A stretch of DNA of 64,000 bases from Lachnospiraceae bacterium AB2028 (lineage in GTDB: Bacteria; Bacillota; Clostridia; Lachnospirales; Lachnospiraceae): contig JHYJ01000003.1 of assembly GCA_000621425.1 (NCBI GenBank), forward strand, positions 1-64,000, written 5' to 3'. A program made the translations under genes and the position numbers. How positions within the stretch are numbered: position 1 is the stretch's first letter; every line of letters starts with the position of its first letter. Below the pieces are notes generated by a model. The model saw nothing but the letters and a program-made list of their open reading frames with translations. It was not told the DNA's origin and did not search any database. Below, piece by piece: positions 36,155-45,114 of this stretch.

Positions 36155-36601
36155 TTAGATAACAGCATTCAGTTTCTCCATCTCTCTGATGACACGTTCT
36201 TTTCCGCACACATGATTGTAGATCCCCATCGTTATAGTGACATCCGCGTGCCCCATGATATATTGAAGTACCTTGGGATCCATCCCGGCCTCAGCCATTC
36301 GCGTACACCCGGTATGCCGTAAGATGTGAGCCGAAATATGTGGGAGCAGAACCGGCTTACGCCTTTCTTCCTTGGCCTTCACCATTTCCTGCCTGTTATA
36401 GGCTTCCACAATGTTCTTCAGGATATTATTGATCGCATTCGGCGCCAACGGTGCACCATTCTTTGATGTAAATACAAACCCACTGAGATCCTCTACCTGA
36501 AAACTCCGGTCAATCCCCAGAAGCAACTGCTGTTTCCTCTGCTCATTCAGCGCTTGACGTACCGCCTTACTCATCGGAATATCCCGTATACCTGCCTCCG
36601 T
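36155..36601 (-). pseudogene. Tn916-type tyrosine integrase, C-terminal fragment
   Basis: The frame carries the catalytic half of a tyrosine recombinase. TEAGIRDIPMSKAVRQAL opens the fragment (equivalent to the KTKSGERQVPM stretch of Tn916 Int). Then come HILRHTGCTRMAEAGMDP, LQYIMGHADVTITMGIYNHV and a short tail. The conserved H-R, H and Y residues are visible. The N-terminal and core-binding domains are missing; integrase homology stops abruptly at 36601, where a 73-bp repeat begins. Downstream of the stop are repeated TTACACCAAAT motifs like integrase arm sites. Confidence 0.85.
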
Positions 36602-36673
36602 ATGACCGGGGGATCTCCATTTGCCCTGTGTTTCGTTTTCAGACTGCCTTGAAGGCCAACTTGGCTGATGGGG
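36601..36673. repeat. 73-bp repeat, copy 1
   Basis: Matches 38716-38787 with one indel and a few substitutions. Copy 1 abuts the integrase C-terminal fragment; copy 2 abuts the integrase N-terminal fragment. Confidence 0.85.
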
Positions 36674-36715
36674 ACCACCTTATCGTCACACTGGACTGCT
36701 TGTCGTTCCTCTGAT

Positions 36716-38161
36716 TTATGATTCTAATGGTTGCAGCTCGGACAAGTGTTTGAGCTCCCAACATTCGGCGGTAGGGCGAAGCTCTGCGATCTTCGCTTCT
36801 ATCTTCTGCAGCCAGCCGTTTCGAAACAGTTCACATGTGTATTCGTCGGGTGCGAGAATGTCACCGGGGTGACACATTAGACCGGCAGCACGACAGCCGC
36901 CAAGACAAAGCTTACGATATTCACAGTTTCTACACTTCTCATTATGCTCAAGTACTGTGCCGGAACGGGTATTTATAAGCTCCATGTACTTTGATTCTGT
37001 CAGGCAATTCTTAAGGCCCAGCTCCTGGATCAGCGGATAATCCGCCTGAAACTCATCATCATTGGAAATCGGCATGCAGGTCAGAGCCCTGCCTTCTGCG
37101 GAAATGTACATGGATGTGCGTGCGTGTGCACACATACATGTATTTTCAGGATTTTTCGATACATGAACGACGGGGATACTATATACGTCCGGTTCCCGTC
37201 CATCCGCAGCAAAAAAGCCGCCCAGCATCAGATGCATATTCGGCAGATCGTTGTAATAATCCTCAAGATAGTTTAAATAGATTTCAAATGTCTCGTCATC
37301 ACTCAGACCACGCTTCCCCGCATAACCACCTTCGTGCCAGGCTCCCGTATCACTTACCGGATTAGTCTTAAGGCTGCGGCAGCCCACAGAAGCCAGGTAG
37401 TTTATACTGTCACGCAGAGTATGTGCATTCTCCTTCCATAAGCACATCTCAGCACCGGTTGGGAAACCATTGTCTCTGCATAGCTCAAATGCATGGCGTA
37501 CTGCCTTTTCAGCACCGTTAATACCCCGGAGCCAGTCGTGATAGCCCACGCCGTCGAAACTCATATTAAATTCGGGATACAGACCTCGCTGCTTGAATCT
37601 CTCCAGAAGACCTTCGTTCACAAGCAAACCATTGGAATAGATCTGGCTGATGTATACGCCCCGCTCGCTCAGAGCATCTACGATTTCCCAGAAATCGGAT
37701 CGCACCAAGGGCTCTCCGCCGGTGATCGAACACGATAACACCCCCGCATTGCCAAGCTCTTCTGTGATCTTCATCACATCATCGTGACTCAATTCTCCGT
37801 ATCTGCTATCCGCAGCAGAGAGATAACAGTGCTTGCATTTGCAGTTGCATCTGCCGGTAACAGACCAATGGGCAGACTCCATAAAACGGTTTTCGTATCG
37901 ATGATAGCGCTGGCGTTCTGACAGACCCTTACCTGCGGTACAGGTCTCTATGTAGCCCTTTTCTTCCAGGTCTTTGATGCTGTCATGCACTTCTTGCGAG
38001 ATCAGCGGAAGATCAAGATCCACAGAGCCGTCACAGAGAGTGAGAGCATCAAACATCGTCTTATCAACAAAATGTGCCTTATGCGTCTCACTGTCAACAA
38101 TAGCATATGGTAGCAGTTTCCAGCCTCTTAAATTGTACTTTTCTTTTAATCGGTAATACAC
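36716..38161 (-). CDS. RRE-radical SAM-SPASM peptide maturase
   Basis: 481 residues from GTG with GAGGAAAATAA upstream. Residues 1-75 resemble a PqqD-like RiPP recognition element. The radical SAM cluster motif is Cys105-x3-Cys109-x2-Cys112 (CNCKCKHC), with SITGGEP and SNGLLV further on. The SPASM region holds CMCAHARTSMYIS, CRNCEYRKLCLGGCRAAG and a late EYTCELF. The enzyme should bind the leader of the Nif11-type peptides just upstream and install a radical-made crosslink or epimer. It is 173 bases after precursor A, separated by a terminator-like hairpin. The type of modification cannot be told. Confidence 0.9.
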   Translation of the reverse strand: MYYRLKEKYNLRGWKLLPYAIVDSETHKAHFVDKTMFDALTLCDGSVDLDLPLISQEVHDSIKDLEEKGYIETCTAGKGLSERQRYHRYENRFMESAHWSVTGRCNCKCKHCYLSAADSRYGELSHDDVMKITEELGNAGVLSCSITGGEPLVRSDFWEIVDALSERGVYISQIYSNGLLVNEGLLERFKQRGLYPEFNMSFDGVGYHDWLRGINGAEKAVRHAFELCRDNGFPTGAEMCLWKENAHTLRDSINYLASVGCRSLKTNPVSDTGAWHEGGYAGKRGLSDDETFEIYLNYLEDYYNDLPNMHLMLGGFFAADGREPDVYSIPVVHVSKNPENTCMCAHARTSMYISAEGRALTCMPISNDDEFQADYPLIQELGLKNCLTESKYMELINTRSGTVLEHNEKCRNCEYRKLCLGGCRAAGLMCHPGDILAPDEYTCELFRNGWLQKIEAKIAELRPTAECWELKHLSELQPLES

Positions 38162-38185
38162 TTATTTTCCTCAACAAAAGAGAGT

Positions 38186-38220
38186 AAAAGCACGTCGCCC
38201 GGGTGAGCGGCGTGCTTTTT
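38186..38220 (-). terminator. Attenuator-like terminator between precursor A and maturase
   Basis: Minus strand: GCACGCCGC (38208-38216 region) pairs with GCGACGTGC (38190-38198), with A-run before and TTTTA after. Partial read-through would give more precursor than enzyme. Confidence 0.6.
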
Positions 38221-38334
38221 CATAGAAATCCCTATACAAAGGATGCCGTCAGGAGTTTCCCTCCTTAGAACAGCTAACATTCAGGTCTATTTAGGAAACG
38301 CTTACTCAGAAAAAAAGTATAATTTCCTCGTAAA

Positions 38335-38586
38335 TCACCAAACAGACCCGTTACTACAGTGGCCTATGAAACCGCTACCTCCCGCAACCTGATCAAGTTC
38401 ATCATCAGATAACACCGCTCCATGTGTCTCCTTAAAATCCTCAGTAGTAAGGGTAAATCCATACTCTTTTGCGATCTCAATTGCCTTCTCCGTGGCAGTA
38501 TCTTTGTCGGTCAGGGCCTCAAGCTTTGTTTTCAGTTCCTCATTTTTGCTTGCTTCCTCAAGGAATTTCTTCAGATTCTCGTTCAT
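38335..38586 (-). CDS. Nif11-type RiPP precursor peptide A
   Basis: 83 residues with a perfect AGGAGG ribosome site. A charged, helical Nif11/NHLP-like leader (MNENLKKFLEEASKNEELKT, then AIEIAKEYGFTLTTEDF) ends in LSDDELDQVAGG, the double-glycine cleavage site for the C39 peptidase transporter. The predicted core is only 13 residues, SGFIGHCSNGSVW, with one cysteine. The leader is nearly identical to precursor B; the cores are unrelated. Confidence 0.92.
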   Translation of the reverse strand: MNENLKKFLEEASKNEELKTKLEALTDKDTATEKAIEIAKEYGFTLTTEDFKETHGAVLSDDELDQVAGGSGFIGHCSNGSVW

Positions 38587-38642
38587 GTGTTTTCCTCCTT
38601 TTTTACCATTTACAAGATGCTGAGAGTTTTTGTTTCAAGCAA

Positions 38643-38686
38643 TTGATGCCTACATAATATTATAGGCATCAATCCGGAAAATTCAA
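38643..38686 (-). promoter_or_regulatory. Precursor A promoter with overlapping dyad
   Basis: Minus strand: TTGAAT (38681-38686), 16 bases, TATAAT (38659-38664). The -10 lies inside the perfect dyad TTGATGCCTA (38643-38652)/TAGGCATCAA (38663-38672). Confidence 0.7.
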
Positions 38687-38696
38687 CGGGATTTAT

Positions 38697-38729
38697 GAAA
38701 AAAATCCCCCGATCATATGACCGGGGGAT
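38697..38729 (-). terminator. Terminator after the truncated maturase copy
   Basis: Minus strand: ATCCCCC (38722-38728 complement) pairs with GGGGGAT (38704-38710), followed by TTTTTTT. It shields precursor A from upstream transcription. Confidence 0.85.
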
Positions 38730-38787
38730 CTCCATTTGCCCTGTGTTTCGTTTTCAGACTGCTTTGAAAGCCATTTGGCTGATGGGG
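38716..38787. repeat. 73-bp repeat, copy 2
   Basis: Homologous to 36601-36673. It links the terminator at 38697-38729 to the integrase N-terminal fragment. Confidence 0.85.
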
Positions 38788-38895
38788 GTTTCTCCAGTTC
38801 CCGAAGTGACAGGCAGGGCTTCTTTCCTTTCGGCTGCGGATCGGTCGGTTCAAGTCGCCAGCTGTATAAGAACTTGGGTTTCCCGTTCACCTGAT
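38788..38895 (-). pseudogene. Tn916-type integrase, N-terminal fragment
   Basis: The minus-strand frame reads YQVNGKPKFLYSWRLEPTD, then KGKKPCLSLRELEK, closely matching the arm-binding domain of Tn916 integrase (GxPxFVYSWKLVxTDxxPxGKxxCLSLREKEK). About 36 residues remain. It is fused at its 5' side to a truncated maturase gene and at its 3' side to the 73-bp repeat. Confidence 0.8.
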
Positions 38896-39086
38896 ACTTG
38901 GATGCTGTCACGCACAGCCCGGTGAATCAGCGGAAGATTGAAATCTACAGAACCGTCACAGAGAGTGAGCGCATCAAACTTCGTCTTATCAAGCCAGTGA
39001 ACCCGATGCATCTTGCTGTCAACAACCGCATACGGCAGCAGCTCCCAGCCTCTCAGACAGTAGTCATCCTTTAATCGGTAGTACAT
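38896..39086 (-). pseudogene. Truncated second copy of the radical SAM maturase
   Basis: The first 63 or so residues (MYYRLKDDYCLRGWELLPYA to AVRDSI) match the N-terminal RRE of the intact maturase, about 70 percent identical by eye. Homology stops near 38896 at the join with the integrase fragment. No radical SAM domain remains. The frame continues for about 15 residues and could express a free RRE-like peptide, since the start and ribosome site survive. Confidence 0.85.
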
Positions 39087-39173
39087 ATTTTTCCTTCAAC
39101 AATACAGATTGCAGCCGTCTATAAAAGGACTTATCACCCATTCCACCCTGACCGCAGGGGAAGTGAGGAGGAT

Positions 39174-39449
39174 CTAGCCTACTCTTCCAGAGAAAATACA
39201 CATATTAGGGGGAATATAACCCCCAAAGCCACATTCTGCTCCACCTGCAACCTGATCAAGTTCATCATCAGATATCACCGCTCCATGTGTCTCCTTAAAA
39301 TCCTCAGCGGTAAGGGTAAAACCATACTCTTTTGCGATCTCGATTGCCTTCTCCGTGGCAGTATCTTTGTCGGTCAGGGCCGCAAGCTTTGTTTTCAGTT
39401 CCTCATTTTTGCTTGCTTCCTCAAGGAATTTCTTCAGATTCTCGTTCAT
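39174..39449 (-). CDS. Nif11-type RiPP precursor peptide B
   Basis: 91 residues with a perfect AGGAGG site. The leader differs from precursor A at only a few positions and ends ISDDELDQVAGG. The predicted core is 21 residues: AECGFGGYIPP followed by NMCIFSGRVG, with two cysteines and two aromatic residues. It is followed by the truncated maturase copy, so its product probably relies on the intact enzyme encoded 1 kb away. Confidence 0.92.
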   Translation of the reverse strand: MNENLKKFLEEASKNEELKTKLAALTDKDTATEKAIEIAKEYGFTLTAEDFKETHGAVISDDELDQVAGGAECGFGGYIPPNMCIFSGRVG

Positions 39450-39505
39450 GTGTTTTCCTCCTTTTTTACCATTTACAAGATGCTGAGAGTTTTTGTTTCA
39501 AGCAA

Positions 39506-39549
39506 TTGATTCCTACATAATATTATACGCATCAATCCGGAAAATTCAA
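39506..39549 (-). promoter_or_regulatory. Precursor B promoter with overlapping dyad
   Basis: Minus strand: TTGAAT (39544-39549), 16 bases, TATAAT (39522-39527). The dyad TTGATTCCTA/TACGCATCAA (39506-39535) is the precursor A dyad with two mismatches. Confidence 0.65.
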
Positions 39550-39612
39550 CAGGATTTATGAAAAAGGCAGCGTAAACTTGGAGTCGGAAAACGAATAATA
39601 GGGATTCCCTCG

Positions 39613-40473
39613 TTATTTTTTATCCCAGAGTTCTTCTTTTGTATCCTCAAGCTTTATTGCAAGTTCATATGGTAACCATGATGTATCTTTACCTGCGATC
39701 TCTGAAAAACGATCAAGTACACAGCAAATCCTTTCGGTCAGAGGCGCATCAACGACTGTATAGTTCTCAAGACGTCCGCCGGTATATATATTTCCGTCTA
39801 TCCCAAGGAACATCTTTTCCATATCGGCGTTATACTTTCCAAACGCTGCCACGATCCCTACCGCATCAGCCACGAGCTCATCCCATATGGCATCCTTTTT
39901 ATCGGGATACAGGTTTCTGCATATAAAATGCGTACACTCGTGGTATTTCCTGATCTTATGCGAAAGAATGATCCATTCCTCATCAGAAACGCCCATCATT
40001 TGCGCCGGTATTGCGCTATACGGGCCTACAGAAAGCACTATCAGTGCATCCTTAAAGTTGCGCCTTTCCGATGTAAATCTCCTGAACTCTTCATCATATT
40101 CGGATCCCGAAAATCCCTCCATATGCTGCTCGATCTTCCGCCGGTTGATGACCCCGTTAATAATGGATGCGCCCTGCGTATCGGGGATATCCGTTTCCTC
40201 ACAGCGGTTAGCCATGATACGAAGGAAAGTCACAAAATCCTCGCGTTTTGAAAGCGTTATGACCGTTACGGCTCCTGCCGGTGTCTCTTCCGTAGTCATA
40301 CTGTCTTCATTACTTTTGATAAAGTGGGAAAGATTTCTTGCTTCCGGCTCATTTCCTCTTTCAACGATATCAAGGTACTTTTCCTTCCCGCCGGGTCCGG
40401 GGGATACAAATAACTGCCTGTATGTATCGGCAAGAGTTTCTATAACCGCTCTGCCGTGAATATACTTCCTCAA
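39613..40473 (-). CDS. Unrecognised HExxH protein, putative zinc metallopeptidase
   Basis: 286 residues; start TTG at 40473, 10 bases after GGAG, as no in-frame ATG precedes it. His178-Glu-Cys-Thr-His182 (HECTH) fits the HExxH zinc motif, and DELVADAVGIVAA (198-210) supplies a glutamate (199) where gluzincins place the third ligand. No signal peptide or membrane segment is seen, so it should act in the cytoplasm. I do not recognise the family. It lies 17 bases after the second ABC transporter gene and before the precursors, so a role in precursor or product processing is inferred, not shown. Confidence 0.7.
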   Translation of the reverse strand: MRKYIHGRAVIETLADTYRQLFVSPGPGGKEKYLDIVERGNEPEARNLSHFIKSNEDSMTTEETPAGAVTVITLSKREDFVTFLRIMANRCEETDIPDTQGASIINGVINRRKIEQHMEGFSGSEYDEEFRRFTSERRNFKDALIVLSVGPYSAIPAQMMGVSDEEWIILSHKIRKYHECTHFICRNLYPDKKDAIWDELVADAVGIVAAFGKYNADMEKMFLGIDGNIYTGGRLENYTVVDAPLTERICCVLDRFSEIAGKDTSWLPYELAIKLEDTKEELWDKK

Positions 40474-40490
40474 ATGGTCTTTTCTCCGGC

Positions 40491-42686
40491 TTATCCATTC
40501 TTACGCTCCACCTGCTGGCGCGACACGAGTTCGGCAAAGAAACCGTTCCCGGCGATCAGCTCGTCATAGGTTCCGTCTTCCACGATCTTTCCTTTATCAA
40601 GAACGATGATCCTGTCACAGTTCTTTATTGTGGACAGTCTGTGTGCTATCACGATCCTTGTACACTTGAGGCCATCGAGTGAATCAGATACCTGCTTCTG
40701 CGTTATATTGTCAAGTGCACTTGTTGCCTCATCAAACATTAAGATCTTCGGCTTCGGGGCGATGGCACGTGCTATCATAAGGCGCTGTTTCTGTCCACCC
40801 GATATGCCGCCACTGCCTTCTCCTATGATAGTGAACATATTCATCGGCATCTGCCTGATATCTTCGGCTACACCTGCCATTTCAGCCGCTTCCCAGGCAT
40901 CATCAAGTGTCAGCTGCGGGGCGGAGATGACAATGTTCGAATATATATCTCCCATAAAAAGCGACATGTTCTGCATGACGATTCCGATCTTGGACCTTAA
41001 GGACTTCAGATCGATCCTGTTAAGGTCCCGCCCGTCATAATAGACCGCACCCTTCTGCGGCTTCTCAAACCCGAGCATAACGCGCATAAGCGTACTCTTG
41101 CCGCATCCGCTCTTACCCGTTATCGCCACATACTGTCCCGGCTTTATCCTAAGGCTAAGATCATCGAGCACCGGAGGCATGTCCTCACTGTAGCGGAATG
41201 TAACATTATTAAGTTCAATACCGCCGGAGAGCTTTTCTATCACCGGTTTGTCCTCGGCTATCTCGGGTGCCGTCTCGATCACCGGTCGAAGCAGTTCAAA
41301 TGTCGGTACTATCCTTGCCGCGGGCTCTATCATCGGAACGAGCGTCTTAATTGCCCCGCATACGATTGCAAAAGCAGCGTTGAACGCATAGTACTGGGCA
41401 ACATCCACATGAGTTTTTATCGCTTGATAATATATGATGATCGTCCCTGTAAGGGATATCGCCGTTATGATCGCCGGGAATACCTTCACGAACATCGGCG
41501 GATCATACATATACTTTGACTGCGTGGCATATGCATTAGCCCACTTGGAAAATGCGCGACGCTCGGCACCGGAGAGCTTGATTTTCTCGATACCGGAGAT
41601 AAGCGAATAGGACAGTCCACTCTCTTTTGCGACAAGCTCCATCTGCGTCATGTTTAACCTTGATCTTATGACAAGGGCAGCGACCAGCGTTATCATCTGA
41701 AGCGCTGCCACAAGAAAAGCAGGGGCCGCAAGTGCAGGTGCGAACGATCTTATCTGGAAGATATAGAGGAACGAGAACAGCGCAGTCGTAAAACATGTCA
41801 TGACCATGTTAAGTATCTCGTATATGAGGATACTCATGTTGCTGACGCGTTGTGCAAGATCACCCGAAGTGTATTTTGTAAAGAATGAACTCGGAAGCGT
41901 CAGGATCCTCATCATCGTTGCTGACTCGATGCTTAGCTTTAACTTCTGCGTCAGCCTGTGAAGGAACAGTCCCTGTATCGTTCCGAACAGAAGGCTTGAA
42001 AGCGATGCACATATGAGAAATACCGCTATCGCAATAAATGCGGATACACTCCTCATTGCCACGATATCCGTGAACAGCAGCCTGTTTATCCATGGGATCA
42101 GCATTCCGACACAGGTCGCGATAAGCGCAAAACCGAAGTAGCCACATACACCGCCCCTGTCAAGGTTAGAGAAGATGTATCCGTACAGATCCTTCATAGT
42201 CATCGCTCTTGTAGGGAATGCTTTATAAAAAGCAAATGCCTCGCCGCTGAAGAGCTTTTCCGAAGCTGCTGTGACCTTTGTCATCATACCCGTTTCCGGA
42301 TCTGCATATTTATAGGCGTTTGCCCCTGCAGGGATAAGTGCTACAGGCTTGCCGTCATCAGCAAAGGTTGTCAGCATAGCACCCGAAGCGTCTTTTCTCC
42401 AACCCTCGCGAAGTACTACCTGCCTTGTCATGACGCCATAAGGACGAAGAAGATACTCAAGAACTTCCTCGATTGACTGCAGTCTTTCGGGAACTTCCCT
42501 GACCTTTATGTGATAGTATTTAAGGATCGATCCTATTGCATCCGTTGCCTGTTCTCGTTCATTCTGCAGTGCGGCAGACAATTTCAGCCCCATGACTGAA
42601 CCCGCGATCTTAAGGCACGAATCCTCAAATGCTTCTATATCGTTTTGTTTACGAAGCTCTATCTGCTCCTCGAACCAGCTTGCCAT
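40491..42686 (-). CDS. NHLM-type ABC exporter without peptidase domain
   Basis: 731 residues; the ATG at 42686 (MASWFEEQ) is preferred to an upstream TTG because GGGAG lies five bases before it. The N-terminal 165 residues are soluble, followed by six membrane segments (about 175-440) and an ATPase domain with Walker A GKSGCGKSTL, signature SGGQKQR and Walker B ILMFDEATSALD. This architecture fits the second ABC protein of nitrile-hydratase-leader microcin (NHLM) systems. It starts 18 bases after the C39-ABC gene. Confidence 0.9.
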   Translation of the reverse strand: MASWFEEQIELRKQNDIEAFEDSCLKIAGSVMGLKLSAALQNEREQATDAIGSILKYYHIKVREVPERLQSIEEVLEYLLRPYGVMTRQVVLREGWRKDASGAMLTTFADDGKPVALIPAGANAYKYADPETGMMTKVTAASEKLFSGEAFAFYKAFPTRAMTMKDLYGYIFSNLDRGGVCGYFGFALIATCVGMLIPWINRLLFTDIVAMRSVSAFIAIAVFLICASLSSLLFGTIQGLFLHRLTQKLKLSIESATMMRILTLPSSFFTKYTSGDLAQRVSNMSILIYEILNMVMTCFTTALFSFLYIFQIRSFAPALAAPAFLVAALQMITLVAALVIRSRLNMTQMELVAKESGLSYSLISGIEKIKLSGAERRAFSKWANAYATQSKYMYDPPMFVKVFPAIITAISLTGTIIIYYQAIKTHVDVAQYYAFNAAFAIVCGAIKTLVPMIEPAARIVPTFELLRPVIETAPEIAEDKPVIEKLSGGIELNNVTFRYSEDMPPVLDDLSLRIKPGQYVAITGKSGCGKSTLMRVMLGFEKPQKGAVYYDGRDLNRIDLKSLRSKIGIVMQNMSLFMGDIYSNIVISAPQLTLDDAWEAAEMAGVAEDIRQMPMNMFTIIGEGSGGISGGQKQRLMIARAIAPKPKILMFDEATSALDNITQKQVSDSLDGLKCTRIVIAHRLSTIKNCDRIIVLDKGKIVEDGTYDELIAGNGFFAELVSRQQVERKNG

Positions 42687-42704
42687 CTTATCTCCCAAAT
42701 GTCT

Positions 42705-44903
42705 CTATTCGCTTGTCAAAAGCTTCGCGTAAAGGCCATCCATAGCTATGAGTTCGTCATGTGTCCCGCGCTCACTGATCTTACCTTTATCAAGCACTAT
42801 TATCTCGTCACAGTCTCTTATCGTTGAGAGCCTGTGTGCCACGACTATCGTTGTGATACCTCTTTCTTTTATTGATGAGACGACATCATACTCCGTCTGA
42901 GCATCAAGTGCGCTTGTGGCCTCATCCATTATCATGATCGTCGGATCCTGCGCAAGGACACGTGCTATCTCGATCCTCTGACGTTGTCCTCCCGAAAAAT
43001 CAAGTCCGCCATCACGAATCTTATACGAGTAGCCTCCGTCCCTCTTCATGATATCATCATGAACATGTGCGTCCCTTGCCGCAAGTATCATCGCGAAATC
43101 CTCGATGGAGTTGTCCCACATTTTGATATTGTTCGCTATAGTATCCTCGAACAGTATGATGTCCTGATTTACAACCGCCACAGAGCTTGTAAACAGGTCC
43201 CTGTCTATCTCGCCCACCGGTTTGCCGTCAAACAGGATCTCTCCCTCCCACGGACGGTACAGGCCTGATATAAGGCGCGAAAGTGTACTCTTCCCGCATC
43301 CGCTCCCGCCTACGAAAGCAACGCTCTTTCCTATCTCGAGTGTAAGGTTAAAGTTCTCGATAAGCGGCGGTGAAAGCTTCGAATAACCGAATGTCACATT
43401 CTTAAGCTCGAGCTTACCTGACAATTTGTTCGAAAAAGTTTTTTCCTCACCGTCCGAAGAATCGGCATGCTCAAGTACCGCATCTTTCGGATATTCCATG
43501 ACATCATCGATACGTTCCATCTGCGTACGCATTTCCTGAAGACCCTGACCCGCTTCTATGAGTGATTGCGCCGGCAGCAGGAACTGCACAAGAAATCCCT
43601 GAAATGCGAGTACCATACCAGATGTGAACTCGCCCTTTATTATAAGGTAAACTCCCATAAGGAGCACGATATCGTTAACAAGTTCCATGACGATCACAGG
43701 TACATTTCCGAGTCTTGCATCTATCCCGGCAAACTTAACGCGCTGGCTGTTAACGCTCGCCTCATATCCGGACCATTTGGTAAAGAATCCGTTCTCGGCA
43801 CCGCTTGATTTGATAGTCTCTATCATCTCTATGCCTGATACTGTCTGTGAATACAGCTTACTTTCGTCGCGCATCATGACACGGGTGATATTGTTCCTTT
43901 TTGCGCTGACAAAATATGCCACAAAAACATTCACCGCTATGGCAACGATGCCTATCGCCGTCATCGCAACCGAATACGACAGCATCACACCGAGGTAAAA
44001 GATCAACATCGCTGTATTTATAACAAGGGGAGCAAATGTATTGACAAGAATACTTGCTATGTTTGCGTTGGCCTGACGTCTTTGTTCTATATCACCTGCC
44101 ATACGCTGTGAAAAAAAACTCATGGGAAGTTGCAGGACATGCCAGAAATATGCAGCATTTCCGACAGCGGCAAACTTACCGCTTATCCGGAATGAATAAA
44201 GCGCAGTGATCCATGCCGCAACGATCTGTACAATGGTAAGTATTATAAGCGCGGCCATAAAGCCGCCGACAAGTGAAGGATTTCTTCCGGGAACCAGTTC
44301 ATCCATGAAGAACCTGGAAAAACCTGCCAAAGCAATGGCACATATTGATGTGACTGACGTTGTTATCGCAACAAATGCGGTTGCCGATCCGGCTCCGATC
44401 ATGCGCTTTTTAGCAAATGCGATCATGCTCTTGGGTTTTCCGGAGGGCTCATATCCTTCGCCCGGAGTGATGACTACTGTAACACCGGTAAAGGCTTCGT
44501 CAAACTCCTTCTCGGTTATGATGACATCACCCCTTGCGGGGTCGTTGATGTACACCTTCCCTTTTTTGAAGCCGCATAAAACGACAAAATGATTGAATTC
44601 CCAGTGTATGATGCACGGAAATTTGGCCTGTTTTTTAAGCTGCTCCGGTTCGAACCTATATCCTGTGGCATTAAAACCATATGTCCTTGCAGCCCTTGCG
44701 ATGTTTCCGGCCTTGGATCCGTCGCGTGAAACACCACAGTCCTCCCGGACCTGCTCAAGGGGGACCCATTTCCCATAATAAGCCATGACCATGGTAAGGC
44801 TCGCCGCACCGCACTCAAGCGCCTCCATCTGCATAACGACGGGAACCTTTGCTATGCCATTTGTCACCGGCTGTTTAATCCTGTTCTTCTTATTTGATGA
44901 CAT
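42705..44903 (-). CDS. C39-peptidase ABC exporter for leader removal and export
   Basis: 732 residues. The N-terminal C39 peptidase (about 15-150) has the catalytic Cys in MEALECGAASLTMVMAYYG, the His in HFVVLCGF and the Asp in INDPARGD. Six membrane segments follow, then an ATPase with VGGSGCGKSTLSRL, SGGQRQRIEIARVL and IMIMDEATSALD. It should cut the Nif11 leaders after Gly-Gly and export the cores. Its start overlaps the HlyD-like gene by 14 bases. Confidence 0.94.
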   Translation of the reverse strand: MSSNKKNRIKQPVTNGIAKVPVVMQMEALECGAASLTMVMAYYGKWVPLEQVREDCGVSRDGSKAGNIARAARTYGFNATGYRFEPEQLKKQAKFPCIIHWEFNHFVVLCGFKKGKVYINDPARGDVIITEKEFDEAFTGVTVVITPGEGYEPSGKPKSMIAFAKKRMIGAGSATAFVAITTSVTSICAIALAGFSRFFMDELVPGRNPSLVGGFMAALIILTIVQIVAAWITALYSFRISGKFAAVGNAAYFWHVLQLPMSFFSQRMAGDIEQRRQANANIASILVNTFAPLVINTAMLIFYLGVMLSYSVAMTAIGIVAIAVNVFVAYFVSAKRNNITRVMMRDESKLYSQTVSGIEMIETIKSSGAENGFFTKWSGYEASVNSQRVKFAGIDARLGNVPVIVMELVNDIVLLMGVYLIIKGEFTSGMVLAFQGFLVQFLLPAQSLIEAGQGLQEMRTQMERIDDVMEYPKDAVLEHADSSDGEEKTFSNKLSGKLELKNVTFGYSKLSPPLIENFNLTLEIGKSVAFVGGSGCGKSTLSRLISGLYRPWEGEILFDGKPVGEIDRDLFTSSVAVVNQDIILFEDTIANNIKMWDNSIEDFAMILAARDAHVHDDIMKRDGGYSYKIRDGGLDFSGGQRQRIEIARVLAQDPTIMIMDEATSALDAQTEYDVVSSIKERGITTIVVAHRLSTIRDCDEIIVLDKGKISERGTHDELIAMDGLYAKLLTSE

Positions 44904-45114
44904 AACTTATCGGTGCCACTTCCTTTACTCCGTTTTCAGTATTGACCTGTATCTTTCCGAACACGGCCCAGAAAAAAGTCCCAGCGATAAGAAGCAGCGT
45001 TGCAAACAGTATCATCCACACAGAAGGGGTGGTCACTTTGATATAGTCGTCAAGCTGCTCGGGGGATGTAACTCTTTCAAGGCTTTTTTTACGAAATATC
45101 GATTTTTCTGCCAT
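44890..45114 (-). CDS. Very short NHLM HlyD-like protein
   Basis: 74 residues with an AAAGGA ribosome site. The start SIFRKKSLERVTSPEQLDDYIKVTTP matches the N-terminus of NHLM secretion (HlyD) proteins, followed by one membrane segment (about 32-52). The coiled-coil hairpin and barrel of normal members (about 250 residues) are absent, ending instead in a 22-residue outer tail. No frame continues it. It is either a minimal accessory subunit or a truncated gene kept for translational coupling to the transporter. Confidence 0.75.
   Translation of the reverse strand: MAEKSIFRKKSLERVTSPEQLDDYIKVTTPSVWMILFATLLLIAGTFFWAVFGKIQVNTENGVKEVAPISYVIK

What the first reader, a model, noticed from the sequence alone, without database searches (positions are those of the whole stretch)
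36155..45114. Compact Nif11-leader RiPP island with a radical SAM maturase and NHLM exporters
Two precursors with near-identical Nif11-type leaders but unrelated cores of only 13 and 21 residues are encoded with an RRE-radical SAM-SPASM enzyme, a C39-ABC exporter, a second NHLM ABC exporter and a HExxH protein. The tiny cores and single maturase suggest a small crosslinked peptide family that I cannot match to a described class.
Basis: partly seen in the sequence, partly recalled or inferred. Interest (0 to 1): 0.85.

Follow-up and report, generated by a model that had tools for sequence, protein, structure and literature searches.

The report
Modified-peptide island with variable cores
A gene cluster in a relative of rumen Butyrivibrio appears to make very short, cysteine-bearing modified peptides of unknown chemistry; close relatives keep nearly every gene alike but differ in the few residues that would become the final peptide.

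Summary
The genes are real: two Nif11-leader precursors, a radical SAM-SPASM protein, two NHLM exporters, a 74-aa HlyD-type protein and an HExxH protein. Four corrections. (1) A second maturase existed: 39086-38850 is an N-terminal remnant, so the island is a decayed tandem pair of precursor-maturase cassettes. (2) PRE1 and the intact maturase lie between two pieces of tyrosine-integrase sequence. (3) PRE2's 21-residue core has kin: maturases at least 54% identical come with Cys/Gly cores rich in C-x-C (29 against 8.4 in shuffles, 25 cores); more distant ones with C-x-x-[DN]-[YFH]-x-C. PRE1's 13-residue core fits poorly. (4) In three near-identical islands the exporter stretch is 98.5-99.1% identical and leaders 96-100%, but cores of the five precursors other than PRE1 are 56-71% (one pair 91%) and PRE1 33-44%. 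Nif11 clusters with radical SAM genes were reported in anaerobes in 2014 (PMC4289311), so the broad kind is known; the window maturase reaches no listed NCBIfam cut-off, and I found no description of this core pattern in ten searches. Likeliest product: short Cys-centred cross-linked peptides, perhaps thioethers. The chemistry is inferred.

The parts
44890..45114 (-). Short HlyD-type NHLM secretion protein (74 aa)
   Evidence: TIGR03794 N-terminal 45 of 421 positions, 32.1 bits, cut-off 156.2; 74 aa and 98% identical in L038 and L039; 133-167 aa in five other relatives
42705..44903 (-). NHLM exporter with C39 peptidase, likely cleaves after VAGG
   Evidence: TIGR03796 885.5 bits, above cut-off; PF03412
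40491..42698 (-). Second NHLM ABC exporter
   Evidence: TIGR03797 702.4 bits, cut-off 709.4
39613..40473 (-). DUF7005 protein with HECTH, optional accessory
   Evidence: PF22541 E 5.1e-51; H178, E179, H182, D198, E199, D203 invariant in 10 rows; present in L038, absent from L039
39522..39549 (-). Promoter-like site before PRE2 (TTGAAT-16-TATAAT)
   Evidence: 10 of 12; consensus match only, 20 such sites found against 14.8 in shuffles
39174..39449 (-). Precursor PRE2, Nif11 leader plus 21-residue core
   Evidence: TIGR03798 48.3 bits; core resembles L038 and L039 cores
38850..39086 (-). Maturase remnant, N-terminal part only
   Evidence: 212 nt at 76% to the intact maturase; 97-100% to the L038 and L039 maturase start over the first 150 alignment columns
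38693..38911 (-). ORF with Tn916-type integrase DNA-binding fragment and downstream repeat
   Evidence: PF02920 E 2.9e-13, positions 28-64 of 70; the same fragment in L039 before a precursor
38690..38745 (-). Terminator-like hairpin after the remnant unit
   Evidence: -24 kcal/mol, z -4.84, 0 of 200 shuffles as stable
38659..38686 (-). Promoter-like site before PRE1, same sequence as at PRE2
   Evidence: 10 of 12; consensus match only
38335..38586 (-). Precursor PRE1, Nif11 leader plus 13-residue core
   Evidence: TIGR03798 52.0 bits; core and spacer unlike the other five precursors
38185..38225 (-). Hairpin between PRE1 and maturase, attenuator-like
   Evidence: -20.2 kcal/mol, z -5.09
36716..38161 (-). 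Radical SAM-SPASM maturase
   Evidence: PF04055; C105, C109, C112 and SPASM cysteines invariant in 27 rows
36601..36658 (-). Second copy of the 58-nt repeat, hairpin cut by the integrase piece
   Evidence: 97% to 38716-38773; stretch 36640-36585 does not form the hairpin (-6.3 kcal/mol, z 1.38)
36155..36574 (-). Tyrosine integrase C-terminal piece (neighbour, not part of the peptide system)
   Evidence: PF00589 positions 76-168 of 172, E 2.5e-18; phrog_1

Best explanation
A RiPP island. The radical SAM-SPASM enzyme recognises the Nif11 leader and installs Cys-centred cross-links in a very short core, most likely thioethers from a Cys to a nearby residue of a C-(x-C)-hydrophobic-hydrophobic-x-G module. 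The C39-ABC exporter cuts after VAGG and the NHLM exporters release a 13-21 residue peptide, probably an inter-bacterial inhibitor or signal. Shown by sequence: the genes and domains, leader, Gly-Gly site, core pattern in relatives, linkage, patchy spread over several phyla, duplication with loss of one maturase. Inferred: leader binding by the N-terminal domain, the cross-link and its type, cleavage, activity. DUF7005 is read as an optional peptidase.
For: Nif11 precursors near the maturase in 58 of 79 fetched loci and in 15 of 15 loci whose maturase is at least 54% identical; NHLM-like ABC genes (34% identity or more over 70 aa) in 29 of 79, and in 7 of 8 of the at-least-54% loci with both 8-kb flanks. 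C-x-C 29 against 8.4 (0 of 500 shuffles) and C-hydrophobic-hydrophobic 35 against 7.6 in 25 cores; 21 of these 25 have two or more Cys. Window maturase in a supported set of 17 rows, 13 labelled C-x-C. C39 exporter above cut-off. Best solved match by profile is SkfB, E 1.1e-24; that SkfB makes a thioether is named in a reference title seen.
Against: No product or mass shift is known. The SkfB match covers profile positions 101-295, mainly the radical SAM core, which many families share. RRE evidence is weak. PRE1's core has one Cys and fits the module poorly; two of the 25 cores (L044, L045) have no Cys. C-x-C enrichment is weaker in the 39-50% group (13 against 6.6, 9 of 500 shuffles as high) and absent below 39% (0 against 8.5). 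21 of 79 loci had no precursor found. Cores are related by descent, which the shuffle test ignores.
Confidence: 0.5

Rival explanations
1. The maturase does other radical chemistry on the core (carbon-carbon or ether cross-links, epimerisation, backbone change), and Cys serves otherwise, for instance as a disulfide or metal ligand.
For: The maturase belongs to no listed curated family, and Nif11-leader substrates elsewhere go to epimerases and the tyramine-excising PlpX (PMC11002830 passages). Cys pairs recur at close spacing, which would suit disulfides or metal binding too. L040 and L042 cores carry extra C-x-x-C pairs of zinc-ribbon look.
Against: Cores of the near clade share mainly Cys, Gly and aliphatic residues; I saw no recurring aromatic cross-link site in them (by eye; not tested).
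Confidence: 0.3
2. The window copy is a decaying locus that makes little or no mature product.
For: Maturase remnant and repeat, cut hairpin, integrase pieces, 74-aa HlyD-type protein, PRE1 core plus spacer found in no other of 144 genomes searched.
Against: One maturase, both exporters and both precursors have intact frames. Leaders stay at 96-100% nt identity with L038 and L039. The 74-aa HlyD form is 98% identical in both, so it is not a fresh break.
Confidence: 0.15

Closest known systems
Nif11/NHLP-leader clusters with radical SAM genes in anaerobes (Letzel 2014, PMC4289311; passages and section 10 read)
   Same: Nif11-type leader ending in VAGG or VSGG, peptidase transporter, radical SAM proteins nearby, cores of 14-59 residues
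   Different: Other organisms in its table; text seen gives no core grammar like the one here; its clusters were not compared by sequence here
Nif11-derived peptide family with NHLM exporters (Haft 2010, PMC2887384; passages and section 7 read)
   Same: TIGR03798 leader, TIGR03794/03796/03797 exporters, hypervariable core under a conserved leader (shown there for NHLP)
   Different: There the modifying enzymes are cyclodehydratases or LanM-like; 'radical SAM' occurs 0 times in the main text
Sactipeptide and ranthipeptide maturases (SkfB, AlbA, StsB; CteB and PapB from PMC11002830 passages)
   Same: Radical SAM-SPASM enzyme acting on Cys-bearing cores
   Different: Window maturase far below the NCBIfam cut-offs (StsB 79.5 against 625, AlbA 65.2 against 850); no bond shown
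PlpX spliceotide enzymes (PMC11002830 passages)
   Same: Nif11 or nitrile-hydratase leaders with a SPASM enzyme
   Different: A separate truncated RRE protein there; Xaa-Tyr-Gly excision site, absent from both window cores; nif11-class maturase 3 model (TIGR04103) 63.5 bits against 725; that TIGR04103 corresponds to PlpX is recalled

Membership tests
Nif11-leader (N11P) RiPP precursors | TIGR03798 leader above cut-off | tested here: met
   52.0 and 48.3 bits against 32.3
Nif11-leader (N11P) RiPP precursors | Gly-Gly site followed by a variable core | tested here: met
   VAGG then 13 and 21 residues; core divergence; cleavage itself not tested
NHLM exporter system | TIGR03796, TIGR03797 and TIGR03794 members | tested here: inconclusive
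   TIGR03796 above cut-off; TIGR03797 7 bits below; TIGR03794 only its N-terminal 45 positions, below cut-off
RRE-containing radical SAM maturases | N-terminal PqqD-fold domain | tested here: inconclusive
   No Pfam hit for the window domain, no significant PDB hit, hhalign 17% against controls under 1%; a PDB match of the whole-protein profile to 5wgg runs from position 22.
SPASM radical SAM proteins | CxxxCxxC and the SPASM cysteines | tested here: met
   C105, C109, C112 and seven C-terminal cysteines invariant in 27 rows; Pfam SPASM score itself below cut-off
Sactipeptide or ranthipeptide | Maturase in a curated family of that class | tested here: not met
   StsB 79.5 against 625, AlbA 65.2 against 850 bits
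Sactipeptide or ranthipeptide | Sulfur-carbon bond in the core | not testable with these tools
   Needs expression and mass spectrometry
Spliceotide (PlpX type) | Tyr-Gly splice site in the core | tested here: not met
   No YG in SGFIGHCSNGSVW or AECGFGGYIPPNMCIFSGRVG

The most novel reading that the evidence does not exclude
A widespread gut and rumen peptide class with a new radical SAM cross-link built on repeated C-x-C-hydrophobic-hydrophobic-G modules, of which the window holds the shortest form, and whose core is exchanged or rapidly remade as a cassette between strains under a fixed leader, spacer and exporter.
Probability: 0.35. Interest if true: 0.8.

Novelty: new variant of a known kind. 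Interest (0 to 1): 0.55.

Why it matters
Related maturases paired with two core patterns (C-x-C and C-x-x-[DN]-[YFH]-x-C) in Bacillota, Actinomycetota and (for C-x-C) Synergistota give a comparative set for asking what one radical SAM scaffold does to different cores. Cores of 13-21 residues are easy to synthesise and to read by mass spectrometry. Divergence confined to the core, between near-identical flanks, makes core exchange or selection directly testable in strain collections.

Tried and rejected
Rejected: that both cores are simply unrelated. PRE2's core aligns with the L038 and L039 cores at 56-67% nt between conserved flanks; PRE1's does not. Rejected: membership of the window maturase in a listed curated NCBIfam maturase family; for the other 26 rows only best E-values were shown, not scores against cut-offs. 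Rejected as a fixed part: DUF7005, found in 8 of 79 loci and missing from L039. In a separate search it is in 12 of 299 family genomes; of the 11 other than the window's, 5 fetched stretches show NHLM, NHLP or Nif11 genes nearby (L140, L144, L145, L147, L149), 6 do not, some of these being short or contig-end stretches.

Led nowhere: PDB profile for DUF7005 (best E 0.75); plasmids (no match at E 1e-30); viral contigs (1 distant partial locus); Rfam at gathering cut-offs (0); DUF7005 in papers (0).

Limits: cores were cut by a regular expression after Gly-Gly. One search dropped rows without a parsed core, repeats of an identical core, and precursors outside about 1.2 kb upstream or 1 kb downstream. 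At least three cores look mis-cut or unrelated (L067 keeps leader residues; L062 starts late; L043 9770 is a distant precursor). The 54% and 39% groups were set after seeing the data. The tree is a quick one without bootstraps; one ORF over 640 aa was left out, labels were assigned by motif count over precursors near each maturase, so L054_5664 may be labelled by a neighbour's core. One search kept the best 80 of 449 candidate stretches, so the 79 loci are not a census.

Full report
What is there. On the minus strand, in order: a 74-aa HlyD-type protein, the NHLM exporter with C39 peptidase, the second NHLM exporter, DUF7005 with HECTH, precursor PRE2, a maturase remnant, an integrase fragment, precursor PRE1, the intact radical SAM-SPASM maturase and the C-terminal piece of an integrase. 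Both precursors pass the Nif11-leader cut-off and end in VAGG plus 21 (PRE2) or 13 (PRE1) residues. In the host genome no other Nif11 match passes the cut-off.

Repeats of 300 nt (97%), 212 nt (76%) and 58 nt (97%) show a duplicated precursor-maturase unit. In the PRE2 unit only the start of the maturase is left. That remnant is 97-100% identical to the maturase start of L038 (Butyrivibrio sp. MC2013) and L039 (Lachnospiraceae bacterium YSB2008) over the first 150 alignment columns and 75% in the next 75; the intact window maturase is 68-79% there, then 97-100% over most of the gene with dips to 89-93% (columns 300-450) and 84-88% (columns 1275-1425). Both copies look like mosaics. Between the units lies a Tn916-type integrase DNA-binding fragment (PF02920, E 2.9e-13); the same fragment lies just before a precursor in L039. 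The remnant unit ends in a strong terminator-like hairpin (z -4.84); in the second copy the repeat breaks off at the integrase piece and the hairpin is gone. Whether the cassette entered an integrase gene or was joined to its pieces by rearrangement is not settled.

Relatives. A scan of named genomes gave 449 stretches encoding a relative, of which 79 loci were kept. Nif11 precursors lie near the maturase in 58 of 79, NHLM-like ABC genes (34% identity or more over 70 aa) in 29 of 79; many loci are cut by contig ends. Of 28 loci with both 8-kb flanks, 23 have a precursor and 19 an NHLM-like ABC gene. Hosts of the loci include Lachnospiraceae, Selenomonadaceae, Atopobiaceae and Synergistaceae, many from rumen and gut metagenomes by their titles. 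Spread is patchy: 2 of 35 genomes of the genus at E 1e-60 (the window's own and a 123-residue partial hit at a contig end), 12 of 299 of the family at E 1e-40, 14 of 392 of the order at E 1e-60 with a profile. Each count includes the window's genome; samples overlap and thresholds differ. The precursor itself was found in 6 of 299 family genomes at E 0.001.

Cores. With maturases at least 54% identical to the window's there are 25 different cores (22 from loci, two from the window, one from L025): 10.5% Cys, 21.1% Gly, 29 C-x-C against 8.4 in shuffles, 0 of 500 as high. Examples: AECGFGGYIPPNMCIFSGRVG (PRE2), ACGFLGGSNPCGCMFSGIGG (L038), and three-module cores in L049 and, at 48% maturase identity, L055. 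In the 39-50% group (23 cores) C-x-C is 13 against 6.6 (9 of 500). Among 54 cores by maturases under 39% there are 0 C-x-C against 8.5, but 34 C-x-x-[DN]-[YFH]-x-C against 0.2. On a quick tree of 90 maturases the window sits in a supported set of 17, 13 labelled C-x-C; the C-x-C label needs 10 changes on the whole tree (shuffled mean 19.1) and the other motif 4 (14.1), so the labels cluster but C-x-C is not one clade. PRE1's core (SGFIGHCSNGSVW) has one Cys; L044 and L045 have a Cys-free core just upstream of the maturase.

Core divergence. Across the window, L038 and L039 the 4.87-kb exporter stretch is 98.5-99.1% identical. Over six precursors leaders are 96-100% identical. For the five other than PRE1, spacers are 92-99% and cores 56-71%, except the two L039 cores (91%). 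PRE1 has cores at 33-44% and spacer at 53-55% to the others, and its core-plus-spacer segment was found in no other of 144 genomes. Haft 2010 described core hypervariability for nitrile-hydratase leaders; here both flanks of the core are conserved, which fits local exchange, conversion of flanks, or strong selection on the core. These were not told apart.

Mechanism. Likely path: leader recognition, radical SAM modification of the core, C39 cleavage after VAGG, export. The modification is inferred. Thioether is favoured because Cys recurs at fixed spacing and the best solved match by profile is SkfB (E 1.1e-24), but that match covers mainly the shared radical SAM core. An RRE is plausible, not shown. 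DUF7005's HExxH followed by DE(L/I)xAD recalls the gluzincin peptidase pattern (recalled, not tested). Promoter-like TTGAAT-16-TATAAT sites precede both precursors; such sites were not significantly enriched in the region.

Prior knowledge. Ten paper searches were made. Seen: PMC4289311 passages and section 10; PMC2887384 passages and section 7; PMC11002830, PMC7470986 and PMC13289728 passages; PMC12636437 abstract and section 6; PMC9062424 a term search without hits; the rest as listings. The parts seen do not describe this core pattern. The Hungate1000 bacteriocin survey text has no mention of MC2013, YSB2008 or Nif11. Subscription journals are mostly absent from the library, so prior description cannot be excluded.

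Verdict. A real RiPP island of a known broad kind, with a maturase outside the listed curated families, a recognisable core pattern in its near relatives and divergence concentrated in the core. Product, chemistry and activity are untested.

Noticed in passing
L085, L086, L087, L092, L093, L095, L097-L101, L107, L116 (precursors near the maturase): A sister set of Nif11 precursors with repeated C-x-x-[DN]-[YFH]-x-C cores (34 motifs against 0.2 in shuffles over 54 cores), also undescribed in what I read.
   Followed up: partly
L031 6705-7427 and 8912-11863: A Lachnospiraceae locus with DUF7005, a related maturase and several Nif11-type precursors whose cores look like small zinc ribbons (CPxC pairs).
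   Followed up: no
L040 2363-7852: One island with two DUF7005 genes and seven Nif11-like small ORFs, several sharing an N-terminal leader like the window's but with CxxC-rich tails.
   Followed up: no
window 38185-38225: Stable hairpin between PRE1 and the maturase (z -5.09), possibly an attenuator that keeps precursor above maturase; the other precursors compared have a different spacer.
   Followed up: partly
L053, L056-L058, L070, L071, L102: Loci with two or three tandem related maturases, suggesting that cassette duplication is common in the family.
   Followed up: no
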